Positions 34,727 to 46,334 of a DNA stretch of 54,482 bases are shown one piece after another; within the stretch, counting starts at the first letter, position 1, and every line of letters starts with the position of its first letter. This stretch comes from Candidatus Poribacteria bacterium (GTDB taxonomy: Bacteria; Poribacteria; WGA-4E; PCPOR2b), in the NCBI GenBank assembly GCA_022822785.1, contig JAJEAL010000040.1, positions 1 through 54,482 of the forward strand, given 5' to 3'. The notes beneath the pieces were generated by a model, which saw only the letters and a program-made list of their open reading frames with translations, had not been told where the DNA came from and did no database searches. The position numbers and the translations under genes are program-made.

Positions 34727-35311
34727 TCAGATAATCCCTAGTTTTTTTAGAAAATATTCGGTCGGAATTGTTAGATCAAGCTCCCTTATCTCATCAGGGG
34801 CGTACCACCCGATGATATCCGCTTCGTCGGATAGGGTTGCTGTGTTCTGATCCACCGTCGCCCGGTATAATCGCCACTCGTGGAAATCCGCGCCGCGACG
34901 ACACGGCTCCTCTAATGTTTCTACAAACACCGGTTTTTCAGGACGGATCTCAATTCCCGCCTCTTCCGCTATCTCGCGAGCAACCGCAATCTCCGGTGTC
35001 TCATCGTCCAAGTCCCAATGCCCGGCAACGATTGTGTAATGAAACGGGAACAATCTTCGGTGAAATAAGAGAAACTTCCCCTCCCATTCGATGACCGCAC
35101 CGACGGAGTAGTGTAGCAATTCACCGTCGGGTAAAATGCGGTAACGCATCTGCGGATAGAACATGATGAGGCGGCTATCATCATACCCACAACGCTCGCA
35201 TCGGTAGTATTCCCTACCTTCAGCCGCATAAGGTTGGATGCCTTCACTCCAGCACTTGGGGCAGTAGCTATGGGTCCCACTATCTTGAGAGATTTTTCCT
35301 TTGACCTTCAC
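34727..35311 (-). CDS. Nudix hydrolase with zinc ribbon
   Basis: A 194-residue protein from a GTG start (GAGGG upstream). An N-terminal zinc ribbon (Cys17, Cys20, Cys38, Cys41) as in NudC-type enzymes is followed by a Nudix domain: box G97 to I120 with AREIAEEAGI (Arg112, Glu113, Glu116, Glu117). The box has one extra residue between the first Gly and the first Glu (GHWDLDDE). It probably hydrolyses a nucleoside diphosphate-linked substrate; zinc-ribbon Nudix proteins include NADH pyrophosphatases, but the substrate here is not determined. Confidence 0.88.
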   Translation of the reverse strand: MKVKGKISQDSGTHSYCPKCWSEGIQPYAAEGREYYRCERCGYDDSRLIMFYPQMRYRILPDGELLHYSVGAVIEWEGKFLLFHRRLFPFHYTIVAGHWDLDDETPEIAVAREIAEEAGIEIRPEKPVFVETLEEPCRRGADFHEWRLYRATVDQNTATLSDEADIIGWYAPDEIRELDLTIPTEYFLKKLGII

Positions 35312-37489: not shown

Positions 37490-37673
37490 GATGCGCTACA
37501 GCAATTATGGGTCCCTTCCAACTTGACCCCGATATCTATGGAGGGAAGAGAAATCAATCTTCTTCCCTCGCCTTGTAGCACTGTACTTCACGAGCGGTCG
37601 CTAGGCTAGAGCCTCGTTCAGATGCATTGAAGAGAGATAGGCACAACGTTTTGCAGAATAGGAAGATAGTGGT

Positions 37674-38783
37674 ATGAGTATATATTATCATGGCACGACA
37701 CGAAAGAATGCTAGACAGATTATCCGAACAGGCTTCAAACCGAAGGCTCCATCACGAGCGGTCTGGTTCACAAGAAGCTGGCGCCGTGCGATGAATCGTG
37801 CGAACCGCAAGGCGGACAAGTCCAAAGATGAAGCGGTTGTGCTGAAATGCGACCTCAATGTCCAGCAATTCCACAAACAGGTTAGCAGTCATCAGATAGC
37901 TGCCAAAGGGAGCATTATTGCAATTCGGGCGCCCGTACCGTCCGCCGTGATAATCTCACACCTTTCTGCTCAGAATCCGTTAGCGTTGCCCTTACCCTCA
38001 CGGACCACTCCCAAACACCTCGTTGAATGGGTATCTGGACAACTTACCGAACGGCTCAACAACTTACTTAGGCTTAAACCCTACAAGGGCGTGCAAAAGC
38101 GCGATCCGGGGATTGAGAGGTTGGCACAATGGGTGATTAAGCATTACGATGCAAATCCCGCTAGTGTAGCTCCCGGAGCACTCTTACAGATAGCGAGTCA
38201 GTGGCTGCCGGAATATTTCGATGGAGTCGAAATTGAACCCAAAACCCTTCGTGTCCATCGTACTAAGCCCGTCAAACTTGAGCCAGAGCCAGTGGAGGAA
38301 GTCGACCCACGTGAGGAAGAAGCGTTCGACTGTCTAGATGCCTCCACCTCCAAACGACGGATTCGGGGGCTCAAGTTGTTGGAAGCGCTTGGAGATGCAG
38401 ACCTGTTCAACTGGTGTACGATGTATCTCGAAGACGAGTCCAGGGAGGTAACTATCGCGGCGTTGAGGATCATTCTCAGTTGCGACGCCGGCGATTCCGA
38501 CGTCATTAAGCCTCTCGCTAACGCCGCAGATAAAAGAATTCGTGCTGCCGCAATAGCAGCACTTGCGAAGCATTCAGGGCCGGAAGTACTGTACTGGATT
38601 GAACGCGGGCTCAAAGATTGTGAAGCATGTATGCGTCTTGAAACAGCGGCAATGCTTCCACAGCTAGATGCGACTGAACATCGCGATCTTTTTGAACTCG
38701 TACGCTACGATCCAAATCCAGAGATGAAACGTCTAGCGCGGAAAATGACCGATGGGAAAGGTTTTCACGAAATACAGTGGTAA
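37674..38783 (+). CDS. ART-fold (KptA/PARP-like) plus HEAT-repeat protein, paralogue 1
   Basis: 369 residues. The N-terminus MSIYYHGTTRKNARQIIRTG with AVWFTRS and VVLKCDLNV ... AIRAPVPSAVI follows the layout of KptA/Tpt1 and PARP ADP-ribosyltransferase folds: an HGT motif, a short aromatic strand (VWFT in place of YF), and late VPP-like strand. A middle domain (HPGI-like DPGIERLAQWV, WLPEYFDGVEIEPKTLRV) is shared with paralogues 2 and 3. The C-terminal 150 residues are HEAT repeats (LDASTSKRRIRGLKLLEAL ... RIRAAAIAALAKHSG ... MKRLARKM). Catalytic activity is unproven. It abuts the GNAT gene. Upstream ribosome-binding site is weak. Confidence 0.8.
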   Translation: MSIYYHGTTRKNARQIIRTGFKPKAPSRAVWFTRSWRRAMNRANRKADKSKDEAVVLKCDLNVQQFHKQVSSHQIAAKGSIIAIRAPVPSAVIISHLSAQNPLALPLPSRTTPKHLVEWVSGQLTERLNNLLRLKPYKGVQKRDPGIERLAQWVIKHYDANPASVAPGALLQIASQWLPEYFDGVEIEPKTLRVHRTKPVKLEPEPVEEVDPREEEAFDCLDASTSKRRIRGLKLLEALGDADLFNWCTMYLEDESREVTIAALRIILSCDAGDSDVIKPLANAADKRIRAAAIAALAKHSGPEVLYWIERGLKDCEACMRLETAAMLPQLDATEHRDLFELVRYDPNPEMKRLARKMTDGKGFHEIQW

Positions 38784-38851
38784 AGCGTTATTGGTTGATT
38801 CCCTCGAACCCACCAATAACGTGCATTCCCAAAGGAAAGGGAAATAATAGA

Positions 38852-39325
38852 ATGCCCGATTCTAAAAGCCCCGTTAGGCTTGAGGCTACGGTTAGTTTAC
38901 GTGAGATTACACGGGAAACGGTCAACTCCATTCTGAATCTTCGTGTAACCGAGGCGCAGGAACAGTTTGTTGCTTCAAACGCGGTTTCTATTGCACAAGC
39001 TCACTTTTCGGAGGAGGCATGGTTTCGCGCAATCTATGCGGATGAGACACCCGTCGGTTTCCTGATGCTATCTGACCAACCGGACACAGGGGAGTATTTC
39101 TTATGGCGCTTCATGGTTGATGCCCAGTATCAAGGAAGCGGTTACGGCCGTCGCGCCCTTGAACTTCTGATTGAGCATGTGAAGACACGACCGAATGCAA
39201 AAGAACTTTTCTTGAGCCACGTTCCCGGTCCCGGCAGTCCCCAAGATTTTTATCGCAAGTTAGGTTTTAAACATACGGGTGAGCAGGCGGGTGAGGAATT
39301 AGTGATGAAATTGATACTTCAGTGA
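38852..39325 (+). CDS. GNAT-family N-acetyltransferase
   Basis: 157 residues from ATG 38852 (AAAGGAAAGG upstream; the frame is open to 38777, overlapping the previous gene). Acetyl-CoA-binding signature YQGSGYGRRALELLIEHV (the QGxGxG/A loop) follows the FMVDAQ strand; C-terminal FYRKLGFKHTGEQ is typical. It resembles spermidine/SpeG-like or antibiotic acetyltransferases, but the substrate is unknown. It lies between ART-HEAT paralogues 1 and 2; its last 11 codons recur as a scar before paralogue 3, so it belonged to the duplicated unit. Confidence 0.9.
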   Translation: MPDSKSPVRLEATVSLREITRETVNSILNLRVTEAQEQFVASNAVSIAQAHFSEEAWFRAIYADETPVGFLMLSDQPDTGEYFLWRFMVDAQYQGSGYGRRALELLIEHVKTRPNAKELFLSHVPGPGSPQDFYRKLGFKHTGEQAGEELVMKLILQ

Positions 39326-39360
39326 AAGGATTTTATCTGAATCCTATACAGGAGGGCGTT

Positions 39361-40395
39361 ATGAAGTTCTATCACGGCACCACCTTACGGAGTGCGATTA
39401 GAATTGCCGACATGGGGTTTCTGCCACGGAAGGGCGCGGTGTGGTTCACGACAAGTAAAAACCGTGCCCAACGTCGCGCCAAGCAAAAAGCGCGTAAAAC
39501 CGCTAGTCCGCCGTTTGTCTTCGTCTGCGAAATCAATGTCCGGGAACTGTCCAACCGGCTTGGAAAACACCTCGTTATGCGCAGCAGGGGATTTCTTGCC
39601 GTTCGCAGGCGTGTCCCACCAACGGTGATACTGAACTCGTCGGAGCTAATTGCCCGGTGGGTAAGCCAGATACTCCACGGCGAATCCTATGAGAGCATTA
39701 GTCCGGATCACCCCGGAATAAATCGGTTGTCGCGCTGGGTGGAAACTCGCATGAACGCCGGCACGGCTCGTGCCATTCGTCCAAAGGAGCTATCACAGAA
39801 GCTCCAGCAGTGGCTGCCTAATTTTTTTCGAGGGGTCAAGATAGTTCCTAGAGAATTACGCTTCGACTATTCTCCCGAACTCGTTGAATTTGAAACAGAG
39901 CCTTCGCTAGAAACAACCGATACGCGCGAGGAAAACGCCCTTAATGCCCTCGCCGATCCGAAACCGCAACGACGCATCCGCGGTCTTGAACTGCTAGTCC
40001 AGCTTGAACATGAGGATCTCTATGAATGGTGCACACTATTGCTCTCGGATGAGTCAGTAGAGGTACGGATCGCTGCCTTACAAACGCTAGTCCATTGCGA
40101 CGAGGGCGATTCACAGGTCATCCTGCCGCTCGCCGAATCTCAAAACAAACGGGTTCGGGGGGCAGCGATTGCCGCGCTAGCCAAGCATTCCACCGAAGAC
40201 GCGTCCCATTGGTTTGAACGGGGGTTGAAAGACCGTGAACCGTGCGTCCGCCTTGAAACTGCCGCCCTGCTTTCAACGCTAGATGCCACCGAACACCGGG
40301 GGATTTTTGAACTTGCACTCTATGACCCCAACCCTGAGATCAAACGCCTCGCAGAGAAGCTCACCACGGGAAAAGGTTATGCAGATGCGAGGTAA
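39361..40395 (+). CDS. ART-fold plus HEAT-repeat protein, paralogue 2
   Basis: 344 residues from ATG 39361, with AGGAGGG upstream. His5-Gly6-Thr7 (MKFYHGTT), VWFTTS (27-32), a Lys/Arg-rich helix, FVFVCEINV and RRRVPPTVI form the proposed ADP-ribosyltransferase-like domain (about 1-90). The middle module is HPGINRLSRWVETR ... LSQKLQQWLPNFFRGVKI. HEAT repeats run from about 195 to the end (KPQRRIRGLELLVQL, RVRGAAIAALAKHS, IKRLAEKL). It is much closer to paralogue 3 than to paralogue 1. No signal peptide; cytoplasmic. It follows GNAT by 35 bases. Confidence 0.8.
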   Translation: MKFYHGTTLRSAIRIADMGFLPRKGAVWFTTSKNRAQRRAKQKARKTASPPFVFVCEINVRELSNRLGKHLVMRSRGFLAVRRRVPPTVILNSSELIARWVSQILHGESYESISPDHPGINRLSRWVETRMNAGTARAIRPKELSQKLQQWLPNFFRGVKIVPRELRFDYSPELVEFETEPSLETTDTREENALNALADPKPQRRIRGLELLVQLEHEDLYEWCTLLLSDESVEVRIAALQTLVHCDEGDSQVILPLAESQNKRVRGAAIAALAKHSTEDASHWFERGLKDREPCVRLETAALLSTLDATEHRGIFELALYDPNPEIKRLAEKLTTGKGYADAR

Positions 40396-40463
40396 AAGTG
40401 TTGTCCGCAATCAGGCGGGGCAAAAACGTTCTTCTTCACCTCTAATGCAGCAGTTGGGTAGAT

Positions 40464-40496
40464 GAGGAATTGGTCATGAGATTGACGCCTCAGTGA
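40464..40496 (+). pseudogene. Remnant of a second GNAT gene (3' end)
   Basis: These 33 bases encode EELVMRLTPQ and stop, matching the GNAT C-terminus EELVMKLILQ. The following bases to the ATG of paralogue 3 also match the GNAT-paralogue 2 junction, showing that a GNAT plus ART-HEAT unit was duplicated and the second GNAT then lost. Confidence 0.8.
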
Positions 40497-40538
40497 AGGG
40501 CTTCTGCCTAAATCTCAAGTATAGTAGAGGGCTGCGTT

Positions 40539-41585
40539 ATGAATTTCTATCACGGTACAACCTTACGGAGTGCAATAAAAATCGCCGAGATAGGCTTTCT
40601 TCCGAGAAAGGGGGCGGTCTGGTTCACCACGAGTAAGCAATATGCTCAAGGTCGTGCCAAACAAAAAGCGCGTAGAACAGGCAGTACACCGTTTGTGCTT
40701 ACCTGTGAGATTAATGTCTCAGAATTGTATAACCGCCTTGGAAAAAGTCTAGTTATGCGTGGTGGGGGAGTTCTTGCTATCCGTGGGCGTGTCCCGCCGA
40801 CCGTGATCCGCTCGCATTTTACGTTGGAGCTACTCAATTCACCTGAACACCTTGCCAAATGGGTGAACCATAGACTTGGACGCAAATCCTATGAAGGTAT
40901 TAGTCCCCGGCACCCCGGAATAGATCGCCTGTCGCGTTGGATGGAAAATCGTATTTCCTCTGGCACGGGCAGCACTATCCGTCCAGATGAATTGTCGCAG
41001 AAATTGCAGCAATGGCTGCCCGACTTTTTCCAAGAGGTCGAGATCACGCCCGAAGATTTGCGTTTCGAGTGTTTTCCCGAACCAGCTGAATTTGAAACTC
41101 CCCCTCCGTCAGAGCCCGTCAATTCACGGGAAGAAAATGCCCTTGATGACCTCGCTGCGGCGAAGCCGAAACGACGGGTTCGCGGTCTCAAACGATTGGC
41201 ACGGCTTGGAAACGAAGATCTCTACGACTGGTGTACGTTGCTGCTCTCGGATGAATCACTGGACGTTCGCATCGCCGCTTTACAAGCGATGGCGCACTGC
41301 GACGACGGAGATCCGGAGGCTATCCTGCCGTTCGCCGGGTCTCAAAACAAACGGGTTCGGGGGGCAGCGATCGCCGCACTTGCTAAGCATTCCGTCGAAG
41401 ACGCTCCTCGCTGGTTTGAGCGAGGATTGAAAGACCGTGAAGCGTGTGTACGCCTTGAAACTGCAGCCGTGCTTCCATCACTAAATGTAGCAAAACACAG
41501 GGGGATTCTTGAACTTGCGCTCTATGACCCCAATCCAGAGGTTAAGCGCCTGGCACAGAAGCTCACCACAAACAAAATTAGGTAG
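40539..41585 (+). CDS. ART-fold plus HEAT-repeat protein, paralogue 3
   Basis: 348 residues; ATG with AGAGGG upstream. N-terminal MNFYHGTTLRSAIKIAEIGF, VWFTTSKQYAQ and IRGRVPPTVI keep the proposed ART-like strands, including a Tyr at 35 in the helix after VWFT. The middle module HPGIDRLSRWMENR ... LSQKLQQWLPDFFQEVEI and the HEAT repeats (KPKRRVRGLKRLARLG ... RVRGAAIAALAKHSV ... VKRLAQKL) are near-copies of paralogue 2, with divergence concentrated in the loops and acidic linker. It ends the tandem cluster; the 180 bases after it hold nothing identified. Confidence 0.8.
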   Translation: MNFYHGTTLRSAIKIAEIGFLPRKGAVWFTTSKQYAQGRAKQKARRTGSTPFVLTCEINVSELYNRLGKSLVMRGGGVLAIRGRVPPTVIRSHFTLELLNSPEHLAKWVNHRLGRKSYEGISPRHPGIDRLSRWMENRISSGTGSTIRPDELSQKLQQWLPDFFQEVEITPEDLRFECFPEPAEFETPPPSEPVNSREENALDDLAAAKPKRRVRGLKRLARLGNEDLYDWCTLLLSDESLDVRIAALQAMAHCDDGDPEAILPFAGSQNKRVRGAAIAALAKHSVEDAPRWFERGLKDREACVRLETAAVLPSLNVAKHRGILELALYDPNPEVKRLAQKLTTNKIR

Positions 41586-44696: not shown

Positions 44697-46334
44697 TTAA
44701 AATTGCCTATCCGCTGTGATAGATTCATCCCAGCGTTGGGCTTCTAGGTACGCCATAACCGCTTGCCGAGCGGCGGGCGAATCCAGGCGCCTCAAGGCAT
44801 CCATGGCAAAAGCACCTACATGGCCGCACGGATCATCCAGTGCGTGGAACAGGACCTCCTCGGCACCCGCAGCGTCCTTTCCGAGACGTGTAAATGCCAT
44901 CGCCGCGTTCATCCGAACCTGATCTTGGATTGTCCATCCACGACGCTCCTCCTCGTACCAGTCCGCCCGATCGTCTGTCAGTAAGTGGCTAATGTGTGGA
45001 ATAAACGTCTGGATATTTTGACGGATGCTTCCTAGCGCGTCCGTCGCCGTGCGAACAACGCGATGAGAATCAACACTCAGGCGCTCCGTCAGTTTTGGTA
45101 CAGCACTCGCGGCGTGAGAATCCAGTTCCCCAAGGGCAAAACTGGCATTAATGCGTACCCATTCGCTCGGAGACTCAAGCGCTTCGGTCAGCGCAGGAAC
45201 CGCCGGCTGCCCGATAGCAGTCAAAGCGTGCGCTGCGTCTTCCATTGAGATAGCCCCTTCGTTCCAAGGTTCCGGGACTGGATGTGCGTCTTCTCGGCGC
45301 CCCGCTGCGTCCAAGCTGTCCATCAACGGCGCAACGGCGGGTTCTCCAATCGCGCCAAGTGTATAGATCGCAGCGACCCGCGCGGCTTGATGGTCATTCT
45401 CTAACATAGCGATCAGGGTGGGGATAGCTTCAGCGGCGTCGGACCCAAGCCCCGCTAAATTATAAGTCGCTCTCAATCGGTCAGTTAGATCCCGATCCCT
45501 CCCCAAAGTAGTGATATATTGAGATAAACGGTTTTTCGTCGATTGGATGCCATTGTTTCGGAAACTTCCGTAACGGTCACGCTTGCCACACAACCAATCC
45601 CACATGTGAGACCATACCAGCTCCAGATTATGTGGTGTTTCGATAGCAGCTGGATTCTGCCACTGAAGTTTCTGACAATCCCACGATGGGGCAGTAGGCT
45701 CCGACCCCCGGACATAAATAAACTTTATCATATCGCGCGGTTGATTGAGGAGATTGACACCCGCGGCATGACCCACGTCGAAATGTGTCAGCGACACGGT
45801 GCCCGCTTTCCCCACCATTGGAATGGCTTGCGCCCGATCTTCATCGGTCAAGGTTTTATGGAATTGTGTACCGGGGATGGCATGGGTCGGTCCCAGTTCA
45901 ATTGGCGTGTCCTGTGGATAGTACATAATCCGAGCGAAACGGGAATAGTGCTGCCGGGGCCTGCCGAGGGGTGTATATGAATCTTGATGGCAGTTCGCGG
46001 CTAACTTGACCTCCGGTTCCGGATCTGGGTCAGTGACCGGTGCTATGTGATGACAGTATCGGTGGGGATGTTCGATATATCCCTCACCCAAGGTGCTAAT
46101 CAACGCACCGCGTACCTCAGGGCTATTGAGGATGTGGCGCATCTCTGGCACCCGTGGTAGCACATTGTTCCCCGGATTACTACCTACCTCCAGAACGTCT
46201 GCAAGTTTTCGGCGGATGGTCTCATGTAGTTCATCGGGAACGACTGGTTCCAGCATGATATAACCATCAACAATGTATTGACGCATCTGTTCATCGGTGA
46301 GCAGGACAGGGGAACTGTTAAACGAAACGTTCAT
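44697..46334 (-). CDS. PhyH-type dioxygenase fused to HEAT repeats
   Basis: 545 residues. Residues 1-215 are a phytanoyl-CoA dioxygenase (Fe2+/2-oxoglutarate) domain: His116-x-Asp118 (CHQDSYTP), distal His184 or His189 (THFDVGHAAG) and Arg200 (NQPRDMIKF). A linker follows, then from about 280 to 530 HEAT/PBS-lyase-like repeats (AAEAIPTLIAMLENDHQAARV, GEPAVAPLMDSL, GQPAVPALTEALES, RINASFALGELD, and so on). The enzyme part would hydroxylate an unknown substrate; the HEAT part suggests protein binding. AAAGGAG precedes the ATG. The fusion is unusual. Confidence 0.88.
   Translation of the reverse strand: MNVSFNSSPVLLTDEQMRQYIVDGYIMLEPVVPDELHETIRRKLADVLEVGSNPGNNVLPRVPEMRHILNSPEVRGALISTLGEGYIEHPHRYCHHIAPVTDPDPEPEVKLAANCHQDSYTPLGRPRQHYSRFARIMYYPQDTPIELGPTHAIPGTQFHKTLTDEDRAQAIPMVGKAGTVSLTHFDVGHAAGVNLLNQPRDMIKFIYVRGSEPTAPSWDCQKLQWQNPAAIETPHNLELVWSHMWDWLCGKRDRYGSFRNNGIQSTKNRLSQYITTLGRDRDLTDRLRATYNLAGLGSDAAEAIPTLIAMLENDHQAARVAAIYTLGAIGEPAVAPLMDSLDAAGRREDAHPVPEPWNEGAISMEDAAHALTAIGQPAVPALTEALESPSEWVRINASFALGELDSHAASAVPKLTERLSVDSHRVVRTATDALGSIRQNIQTFIPHISHLLTDDRADWYEEERRGWTIQDQVRMNAAMAFTRLGKDAAGAEEVLFHALDDPCGHVGAFAMDALRRLDSPAARQAVMAYLEAQRWDESITADRQF

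What the first reader, a model, noticed from the sequence alone, without database searches (positions are those of the whole stretch)
37674..41585. Tandem locus of ART-like/HEAT fusion proteins with a GNAT acetyltransferase
Three neighbouring genes share an N-terminal HGT...VWFT...VPPTVI layout resembling KptA/PARP-type NAD-using folds, a middle HPGI/WLPxFF module, and C-terminal HEAT repeats. I know of no described system with this build. A GNAT gene is embedded. Local duplication suggests selection for copies with different targets, as in toxin, defence or RNA-repair families.
Basis: partly seen in the sequence, partly recalled or inferred. Interest (0 to 1): 0.75.

Follow-up and report, generated by a model that had tools for sequence, protein, structure and literature searches.

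The report
Poribacterial KptA-like ADP-ribosyltransferase–HEAT gene cluster
Three neighbouring genes in a Poribacteria genome encode proteins that join an NAD-binding ADP-ribosyltransferase-type domain, a piece borrowed from the end of a leucine/lysine-pathway enzyme, and a HEAT-repeat scaffold; I found no earlier description of this combination, it is conserved across the lineage but repeatedly lost, and it most likely modifies phosphates on nucleic acids.

Summary
Three genes (37674-38783, 39361-40395, 40539-41585) share one build. (1) A 93-residue N-terminal domain is an ADP-ribosyltransferase (ART) fold closest to the NAD lobe of Tpt1/KptA: AlphaFold pLDDT 95.6, all 18 best PDB matches are Tpt1/KptA, and profile searches agree. 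(2) The 'HPGI/WLPxFF' middle module is homologous to the C-terminal subdomain of isopropylmalate/homocitrate-synthase-like enzymes. (3) The C-terminal part is about five HEAT repeats. They are not KptA: the RNA lobe and the catalytic Arg-His-Arg-Arg tetrad are missing and the second histidine is tryptophan, although the residues that hold NAD's adenosine (HGT...I...G) are nearly invariant. The family occurs in about half of the sampled Poribacteria, plus one Armatimonadota and two Planctomycetota genomes. It is single-copy in a housekeeping neighbourhood in one genus, tandem in the window's genus, and lost by deletion or decay elsewhere. dN/dS is 0.11-0.25: functional, faster than its neighbours, no sign of diversifying selection. 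Sister architectures join the same ART domain to helix-turn-helix segments or to a primase-like domain plus HEAT. Best guess: NAD-dependent ADP-ribosylation of a nucleic-acid phosphate. The chemistry is untested.

The parts
37674..38783 (+). ART1: KptA-like ART domain + HMGL-C-like module + HEAT repeats (369 aa)
   Evidence: ORF; HEAT_2 7.3e-8; PRK00819 KptA C-lobe 1.7e-4 over residues 3-92; upstream AGGAAG at 37660
37674..37964 (+). ART domain of ART1
38001..38264 (+). middle (HMGL-C-like) module of ART1
38310..38747 (+). HEAT repeats of ART1 (approximate limits)
38852..39325 (+). GNAT acetyltransferase (open frame from GTG 38777; ATG 38852 preferred)
   Evidence: Acetyltransf_1 4e-14; sequence; syntenic in three other species
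39350..39355 (+). AGGAGG ribosome-binding site of ART2
   Evidence: sequence
39361..40395 (+). ART2: KptA-like ART domain + HMGL-C-like module + HEAT repeats (344 aa)
39361..39639 (+). ART domain of ART2
39631..39870 (+). middle (HMGL-C-like) module of ART2
39937..40350 (+). HEAT repeats of ART2 (approximate limits)
   Evidence: HEAT_2 5.9e-11
40539..41585 (+). ART3: KptA-like ART domain + HMGL-C-like module + HEAT repeats (348 aa)
   Evidence: full-length AlphaFold model pLDDT 85
40539..40817 (+). ART domain of ART3 (residues 1-93)
   Evidence: AlphaFold pLDDT 95.6; Foldseek best 18 hits all Tpt1/KptA
40830..41069 (+). middle (HMGL-C-like) module of ART3
41124..41570 (+). five HEAT-like helix pairs of ART3 (residues 196-344)

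Best explanation
A family of cytoplasmic, NAD-binding enzymes that join the NAD lobe of a KptA/Tpt1-like ADP-ribosyltransferase to a scavenged C-terminal subdomain of an isopropylmalate/homocitrate-synthase-type enzyme and to a HEAT-repeat solenoid. Most likely mechanism: the ART domain binds NAD+ and transfers ADP-ribose to a phosphate group. The likely acceptor is a terminal or internal phosphate on RNA or DNA, because the domain, like KptA, has no conserved catalytic glutamate and is strongly basic. The lost KptA RNA lobe is replaced by the middle module and HEAT repeats, which choose the substrate or partner. Shown: domain composition, fold, homology, conservation of the NAD adenosine-pocket residues, purifying selection, conservation and repeated loss. 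Inferred: NAD binding, catalysis, nucleic-acid substrate, role of HEAT.
For: ART domain model pLDDT 95.6; the 18 best Foldseek PDB hits are all Tpt1/KptA, TM up to 0.71 on the query, followed by other ARTs. The profile of 18 homologues finds KptA chains at E 1.5e-4, and all nine best hits are KptA. Homologues from other lineages independently hit KptA, PARP and ART-PolyVal models. CthTpt1 residues that hold the adenosine (His101, Thr103, Ile111, Gly115; PMC6333775) correspond to H5 45/47, T7 47/47, I15 47/47, G19 47/47. No fully conserved acidic residue in the domain, which has pI 11.5-12 and net charge +13 to +18. Tpt1 family members ADP-ribosylate 5'-phosphates of DNA and RNA (PMC8385414). 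The same ART domain is fused to a primase-like domain with HEAT and to HTH segments. dN/dS 0.11-0.25.
Against: No biochemistry exists. The KptA tetrad (Arg18, His19, Arg68, Arg121) is absent or not alignable and the second motif His is Trp, so KptA's own reaction is unlikely and an inactive NAD/ADP-ribose sensor is possible. Scores against KptA are below curated cut-offs. Primase-like assignments are weak by profile (E 0.002-0.04). The gene is dispensable: lost or decayed in many genomes.
Confidence: 0.45

Rival explanations
1. Catalytically inactive NAD+ or ADP-ribose sensor: the ART domain binds the nucleotide and the HEAT scaffold relays the state to a partner, possibly with the acetyltransferase.
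For: Adenosine-pocket residues are conserved while the KptA catalytic tetrad and the H-Y-E type residues are not; a HEAT solenoid suits a regulatory adaptor role.
Against: The conserved Trp28 and conserved basic residues R39 and K43 suggest retained active-site chemistry; the domain is under purifying selection throughout.
Confidence: 0.25
2. ADP-ribosylating conflict protein (toxin, abortive defence or counter-phage system) diversified by tandem duplication.
For: ART folds are common in conflict systems (PMC9503650); genes evolve about three to four times faster in dN/dS than their neighbours; patchy presence, a deletion scar in a sister species and distribution over three phyla.
Against: No defence profile apart from HEAT matches, no adjacent antitoxin or macrodomain (single macrodomain gene on another contig), no phage, plasmid or viral-contig relatives; single copy between housekeeping genes in about 22 sister-genus loci; no diversifying selection.
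Confidence: 0.15
3. Mono-ADP-ribosyltransferase acting on a protein, with HEAT repeats binding the target.
For: HEAT repeats usually bind proteins; the ART superfamily mostly modifies proteins; Foldseek also finds toxin ARTs, DarT and PARP10.
Against: Protein ARTs generally need a catalytic Glu/Gln, and no such residue is invariant here; the closest acidic/Gln column (57) is 83% D/E/Q and absent from some members.
Confidence: 0.1
4. Effector delivered to the sponge host, since HEAT and other eukaryote-like repeats are enriched in sponge symbionts (PMC8163846).
For: Host lineage is Candidatus Poribacteria; HEAT repeats are reported as enriched in sponge-associated Poribacteria.
Against: Proteins begin directly with the ART strand (M-N-F-Y-H-G), leaving no room for an N-terminal signal peptide; no secretion genes nearby; relatives occur in Armatimonadota and Planctomycetota genomes.
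Confidence: 0.05

Closest known systems
Tpt1/KptA RNA 2'-phosphotransferase (PF01885, NF002013)
   Same: Fold of the NAD lobe, HGT motif, adenosine-pocket residues, no conserved catalytic glutamate
   Different: No N-terminal RNA lobe, catalytic Arg-His-Arg-Arg tetrad missing, HVH replaced by VW, fused to HMGL-C-like module and HEAT; below all curated cut-offs
PARP / DarT / ART-PolyVal and toxin ARTs
   Same: Same superfamily fold; weak profile hits of homologues to PF00644 and PF18760
   Different: No Tyr/Glu active-site pair; no macrodomain antitoxin, no viral or toxin context
2-isopropylmalate / homocitrate synthase-like enzymes (HMGL, PF00682 + PF22617)
   Same: The middle module is homologous to their C-terminal subdomain after the catalytic barrel
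   Different: The TIM-barrel catalytic domain is absent here
HEAT-repeat proteins (PF13646)
   Same: About five HEAT repeats, above cut-off
   Different: Fused to an ART domain; no HEAT-ART fusion found in the literature searched

Membership tests
Tpt1/KptA | ART-type NAD lobe with HGT motif | tested here: met
   Foldseek top 18 hits; H 45/47, G 47/47, T 47/47
Tpt1/KptA | N-terminal RNA lobe carrying tetrad residues Arg18, His19, Arg68 | tested here: not met
   Proteins start at the first strand of the NAD lobe; tetrad definition from PMC6333775
Tpt1/KptA | Fourth tetrad residue Arg121 (RxxVH) | tested here: not met
   No Arg conserved at the aligned position; loop varies in length
Tpt1/KptA | Score above curated cut-off of PF01885 or NF002013 | tested here: not met
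   Best NF002013 21 bits vs cut-off 231; best PF01885 among relatives 21.3 vs 26
Tpt1/KptA | NAD+-dependent removal of RNA 2'-phosphate | not testable with these tools
   needs biochemistry
ART superfamily | ART fold by structure comparison | tested here: met
PARP/DarT-type protein or base ARTs | H-Y-E (or catalytic Glu) triad | tested here: not met
   second position Trp 45/47; no invariant Glu
DarTG-type toxin-antitoxin | Adjacent macrodomain antitoxin gene | tested here: not met
   Macro domain gene only on another contig, G000:C129
HEAT repeat (PF13646) | Score above cut-off | tested here: met
   33-43.9 bits vs 27.7
HMGL synthase (IPMS/homocitrate synthase) | C-terminal subdomain homology | tested here: met
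   A1 profile vs L110 E 5.6e-16; A5 module profile finds 450-640 aa HMGL enzymes in several genomes
HMGL synthase (IPMS/homocitrate synthase) | HMGL catalytic barrel | tested here: not met
   No PF00682 match in the window proteins
Known anti-phage defence system (PADLOC) | Specific profile match | tested here: not met
   Only HEAT-ARM type and other marginal matches
GNAT acetyltransferase | Acetyltransf_1 above cut-off | tested here: met
   53.3 bits vs 20.7

The most novel reading that the evidence does not exclude
A new clade of KptA-like ARTs that has swapped the RNA lobe for an enzyme-derived module plus a HEAT scaffold, or for primase-like or HTH domains, and uses NAD+ to cap or mark phosphorylated RNA or DNA ends in bacteria: a nucleic-acid ADP-ribosylation pathway outside PARP, DarT and canonical Tpt1.
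Probability: 0.3. Interest if true: 0.75.

Novelty: new variant of a known kind. Interest (0 to 1): 0.5.

Why it matters
Tpt1/KptA is widespread in bacteria whose need for it is unclear, and its family can put ADP-ribose caps on RNA and DNA ends (PMC8385414). No KptA was found in the nine genomes of the window's bacterial family that were searched, yet eight of those nine carry this relative of its NAD lobe in one or more fusions. It gives a testable natural experiment: what the NAD lobe does without the RNA lobe, and how a HEAT or primase partner redirects it. It also shows an enzyme subdomain from amino-acid biosynthesis reused as a building block.

Tried and rejected
Canonical KptA: rejected, RNA lobe and tetrad absent, and PF01885 has no match in the nine genomes of the family. 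Toxin-antitoxin: rejected as main reading, no antitoxin or macrodomain beside the genes. Phage, plasmid or viral origin: no relative in phage or plasmid records or viral contigs. Diversifying selection: dN/dS 0.11-0.25 overall. Inserted cassette with a clean empty site: the sister species G001 has the flanking genes 174 bp apart, but its spacer keeps a 45-bp GNAT remnant and the ART3 downstream region, so this is a deletion and not an unoccupied site. The NUDIX gene at 34727-35311 as an ADP-ribose-processing partner: opposite strand, separated by two metabolic genes, and not seen among the conserved neighbours of the gene in the sister genus, so not claimed. RNA elements near the locus: none. 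Searching phyla of the Armatimonadota and Planctomycetota members was not possible. The full-length Foldseek search returned only HEAT or armadillo solenoids among its best rows, which is why the ART domain was modelled alone.

Full report
Observation. The window lies in a 5.6-Mb genome (G000, contig 127) whose closest named relatives are Candidatus Poribacteria. Genes 2 and 3 are 70% identical, and genes 1 and 3 are 47% identical.

N-terminal domain. Direct scans are suggestive: gene 1 matches the C-terminal lobe of KptA (NF002013) at 1.7e-4 over residues 3-92, and genes 2 and 3 match ART-PolyVal weakly. Relatives strengthen this. Proteins of the second architecture match PF01885 at 3e-4 and PARP at 7e-4, and the Armatimonadota and Planctomycetota members match NF002013 at 1.7e-3 and 4e-4. 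A profile of 18 N-domains searched against PDB sequences returns Tpt1/KptA as its nine best hits, best E 1.5e-4. AlphaFold gives pLDDT 95.6 for the domain alone and 85 for the full protein. Foldseek of the domain against the PDB gives Tpt1/KptA for the first 18 rows, then other ARTs including DarT1, Arr and PARP10; the viral library gives KptA, DarT and other ARTs. The fold is therefore settled as ART, nearest KptA.

Active site. The CthTpt1 structure paper (PMC6333775) defines the adenosine contacts (His101, Thr103, Ile111, Gly115) and an essential tetrad Arg18, His19, Arg68, Arg121. Across 47 homologues the HGT histidine is kept in 45, the threonine, isoleucine and glycine in all 47. The position of CthTpt1 His125 is Trp in 45. 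The first three tetrad residues lie in a lobe these proteins lack, and no Arg is fixed at the Arg121 position. Basic residues R39 (79% basic) and K43 (81% basic) sit near CthTpt1 Arg139/Arg140 in the alignment. No acidic residue is invariant. The ART domains have pI 11.5-12. I infer that NAD binding is kept and that KptA's own 2'-phosphate chemistry is not.

Middle module. The family profile matches, at 5.6e-16 and 3.6e-12, two proteins of 639 and 613 residues. These are HMGL enzymes related to homocitrate and isopropylmalate synthases. A profile of the module alone finds further 450-500-residue enzymes; four were read and all carry the HMGL sequence followed by this module. The second architecture preserves the whole stretch, from the strand before the SG motif to the HP-x-V/I...W-V/I-E helix. 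The module was thus exchanged between an amino-acid-pathway enzyme type and ART proteins.

C-terminal region. HEAT_2 passes its cut-off in all three genes, and the model shows five helix pairs from residue 196 to 344.

Distribution and history. The family profile matches 42 of 85 sampled genomes of the phylum, and this count includes the second architecture and relics. One copy is the rule in genus g8, where it sits between a DUF1844-like gene and an ion-channel-like gene upstream of a ComM-like gene (assigned by eye) in about 22 loci. In the window's genus the GNAT-ART2-ART3 order is shared by four species, and ART1 is only here. In G001 of the same genus the flanking orthologues (93% identical) are 174 bp apart, and the spacer holds a 45-bp GNAT relic, so the block was deleted. 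Relics with stops or truncations occur in g8. In the tree the Armatimonadota and Planctomycetota sequences nest inside one poribacterial clade and ART1 groups with genes of two other genera, which indicates transfer between phyla, or mis-binned contigs for those two short contigs.

Selection. Between species ART2 and ART3 have dN/dS 0.11-0.25, against 0.03-0.08 for the flanking genes at similar dS; the GNAT is higher still at 0.18-0.50. The genes are functional, with relaxed but clear constraint. There is no sign of positive selection outside a short linker, whose ratios rest on 20 codons.

Other architectures with the same ART domain. (i) N-terminal HTH-like segment + ART + HMGL-C module without HEAT, present in all six genomes of the genus, next to a different GNAT and, in most loci, a NUDIX gene. 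(ii) An ART inserted into a primase-like domain followed by HEAT repeats (L178 1334-3589), and a similar split pair (L114), with motifs GFD-x-x-FE-x-D, KYSG-x-x-SLH and R-L-A-Y-SLNE; profile support is weak (PF01896 0.002 and PF21686 0.03). These contexts favour a nucleic-acid role.

Mechanism. Tpt1-family enzymes ADP-ribosylate 5'-phosphates of RNA and DNA (PMC8385414). An ART without a conserved glutamate, strongly basic and repeatedly fused to nucleic-acid-type domains most plausibly transfers ADP-ribose to a phosphate. This is inference, and an inactive sensor is the main rival. A toxin or defence role is less likely: no antitoxin, no defence or mobile context, single-copy housekeeping synteny.

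Novelty. Pfam, NCBIfam, PADLOC and PHROGs have no family for the whole, and full-text searches found no such fusion. The parts are known; the combination and the lobe swap appear undescribed. The searched library holds open-access papers only, so absence is not proof.

Noticed in passing
L178 1334-3589; L114 145-1107 and 1089-3452 (genome G007): A 752-residue protein with a primase-like domain split by a KptA-like ART insert and followed by HEAT repeats, plus a related gene pair in which one partner has the ART and the other has HEAT.
   Followed up: partly
L110 949-2865 and L111 3589-5427 (genomes G059, G060): Isopropylmalate/homocitrate-synthase-like enzymes carrying the middle module and then a PDC/Cache-type sensor domain at the C-terminus (Pfam match shown for L110), an odd enzyme-sensor fusion.
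   Followed up: no
G001:C1:1221823-1221996: Deletion scar of the ART block in a sister species that keeps a 45-bp GNAT relic between the conserved flanking genes.
   Followed up: yes
window 44697-46334 (-): PhyH (phytanoyl-CoA dioxygenase) domain fused to HEAT repeats; HEAT seems to be attached to unrelated enzymes in this lineage.
   Followed up: partly
L049 8994-16217 and L050-L055: Second ART locus of the genus: HTH-like + ART + HMGL-C proteins beside a 440-residue GNAT and, in most loci, a NUDIX hydrolase; GNAT adjacency recurs at both ART loci.
   Followed up: partly
L112 4157-7956 (genome G060): ART+HMGL-C gene, a gene that looks like an RsgA-type GTPase, and a primase-like gene in a row on the same strand.
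   Followed up: no
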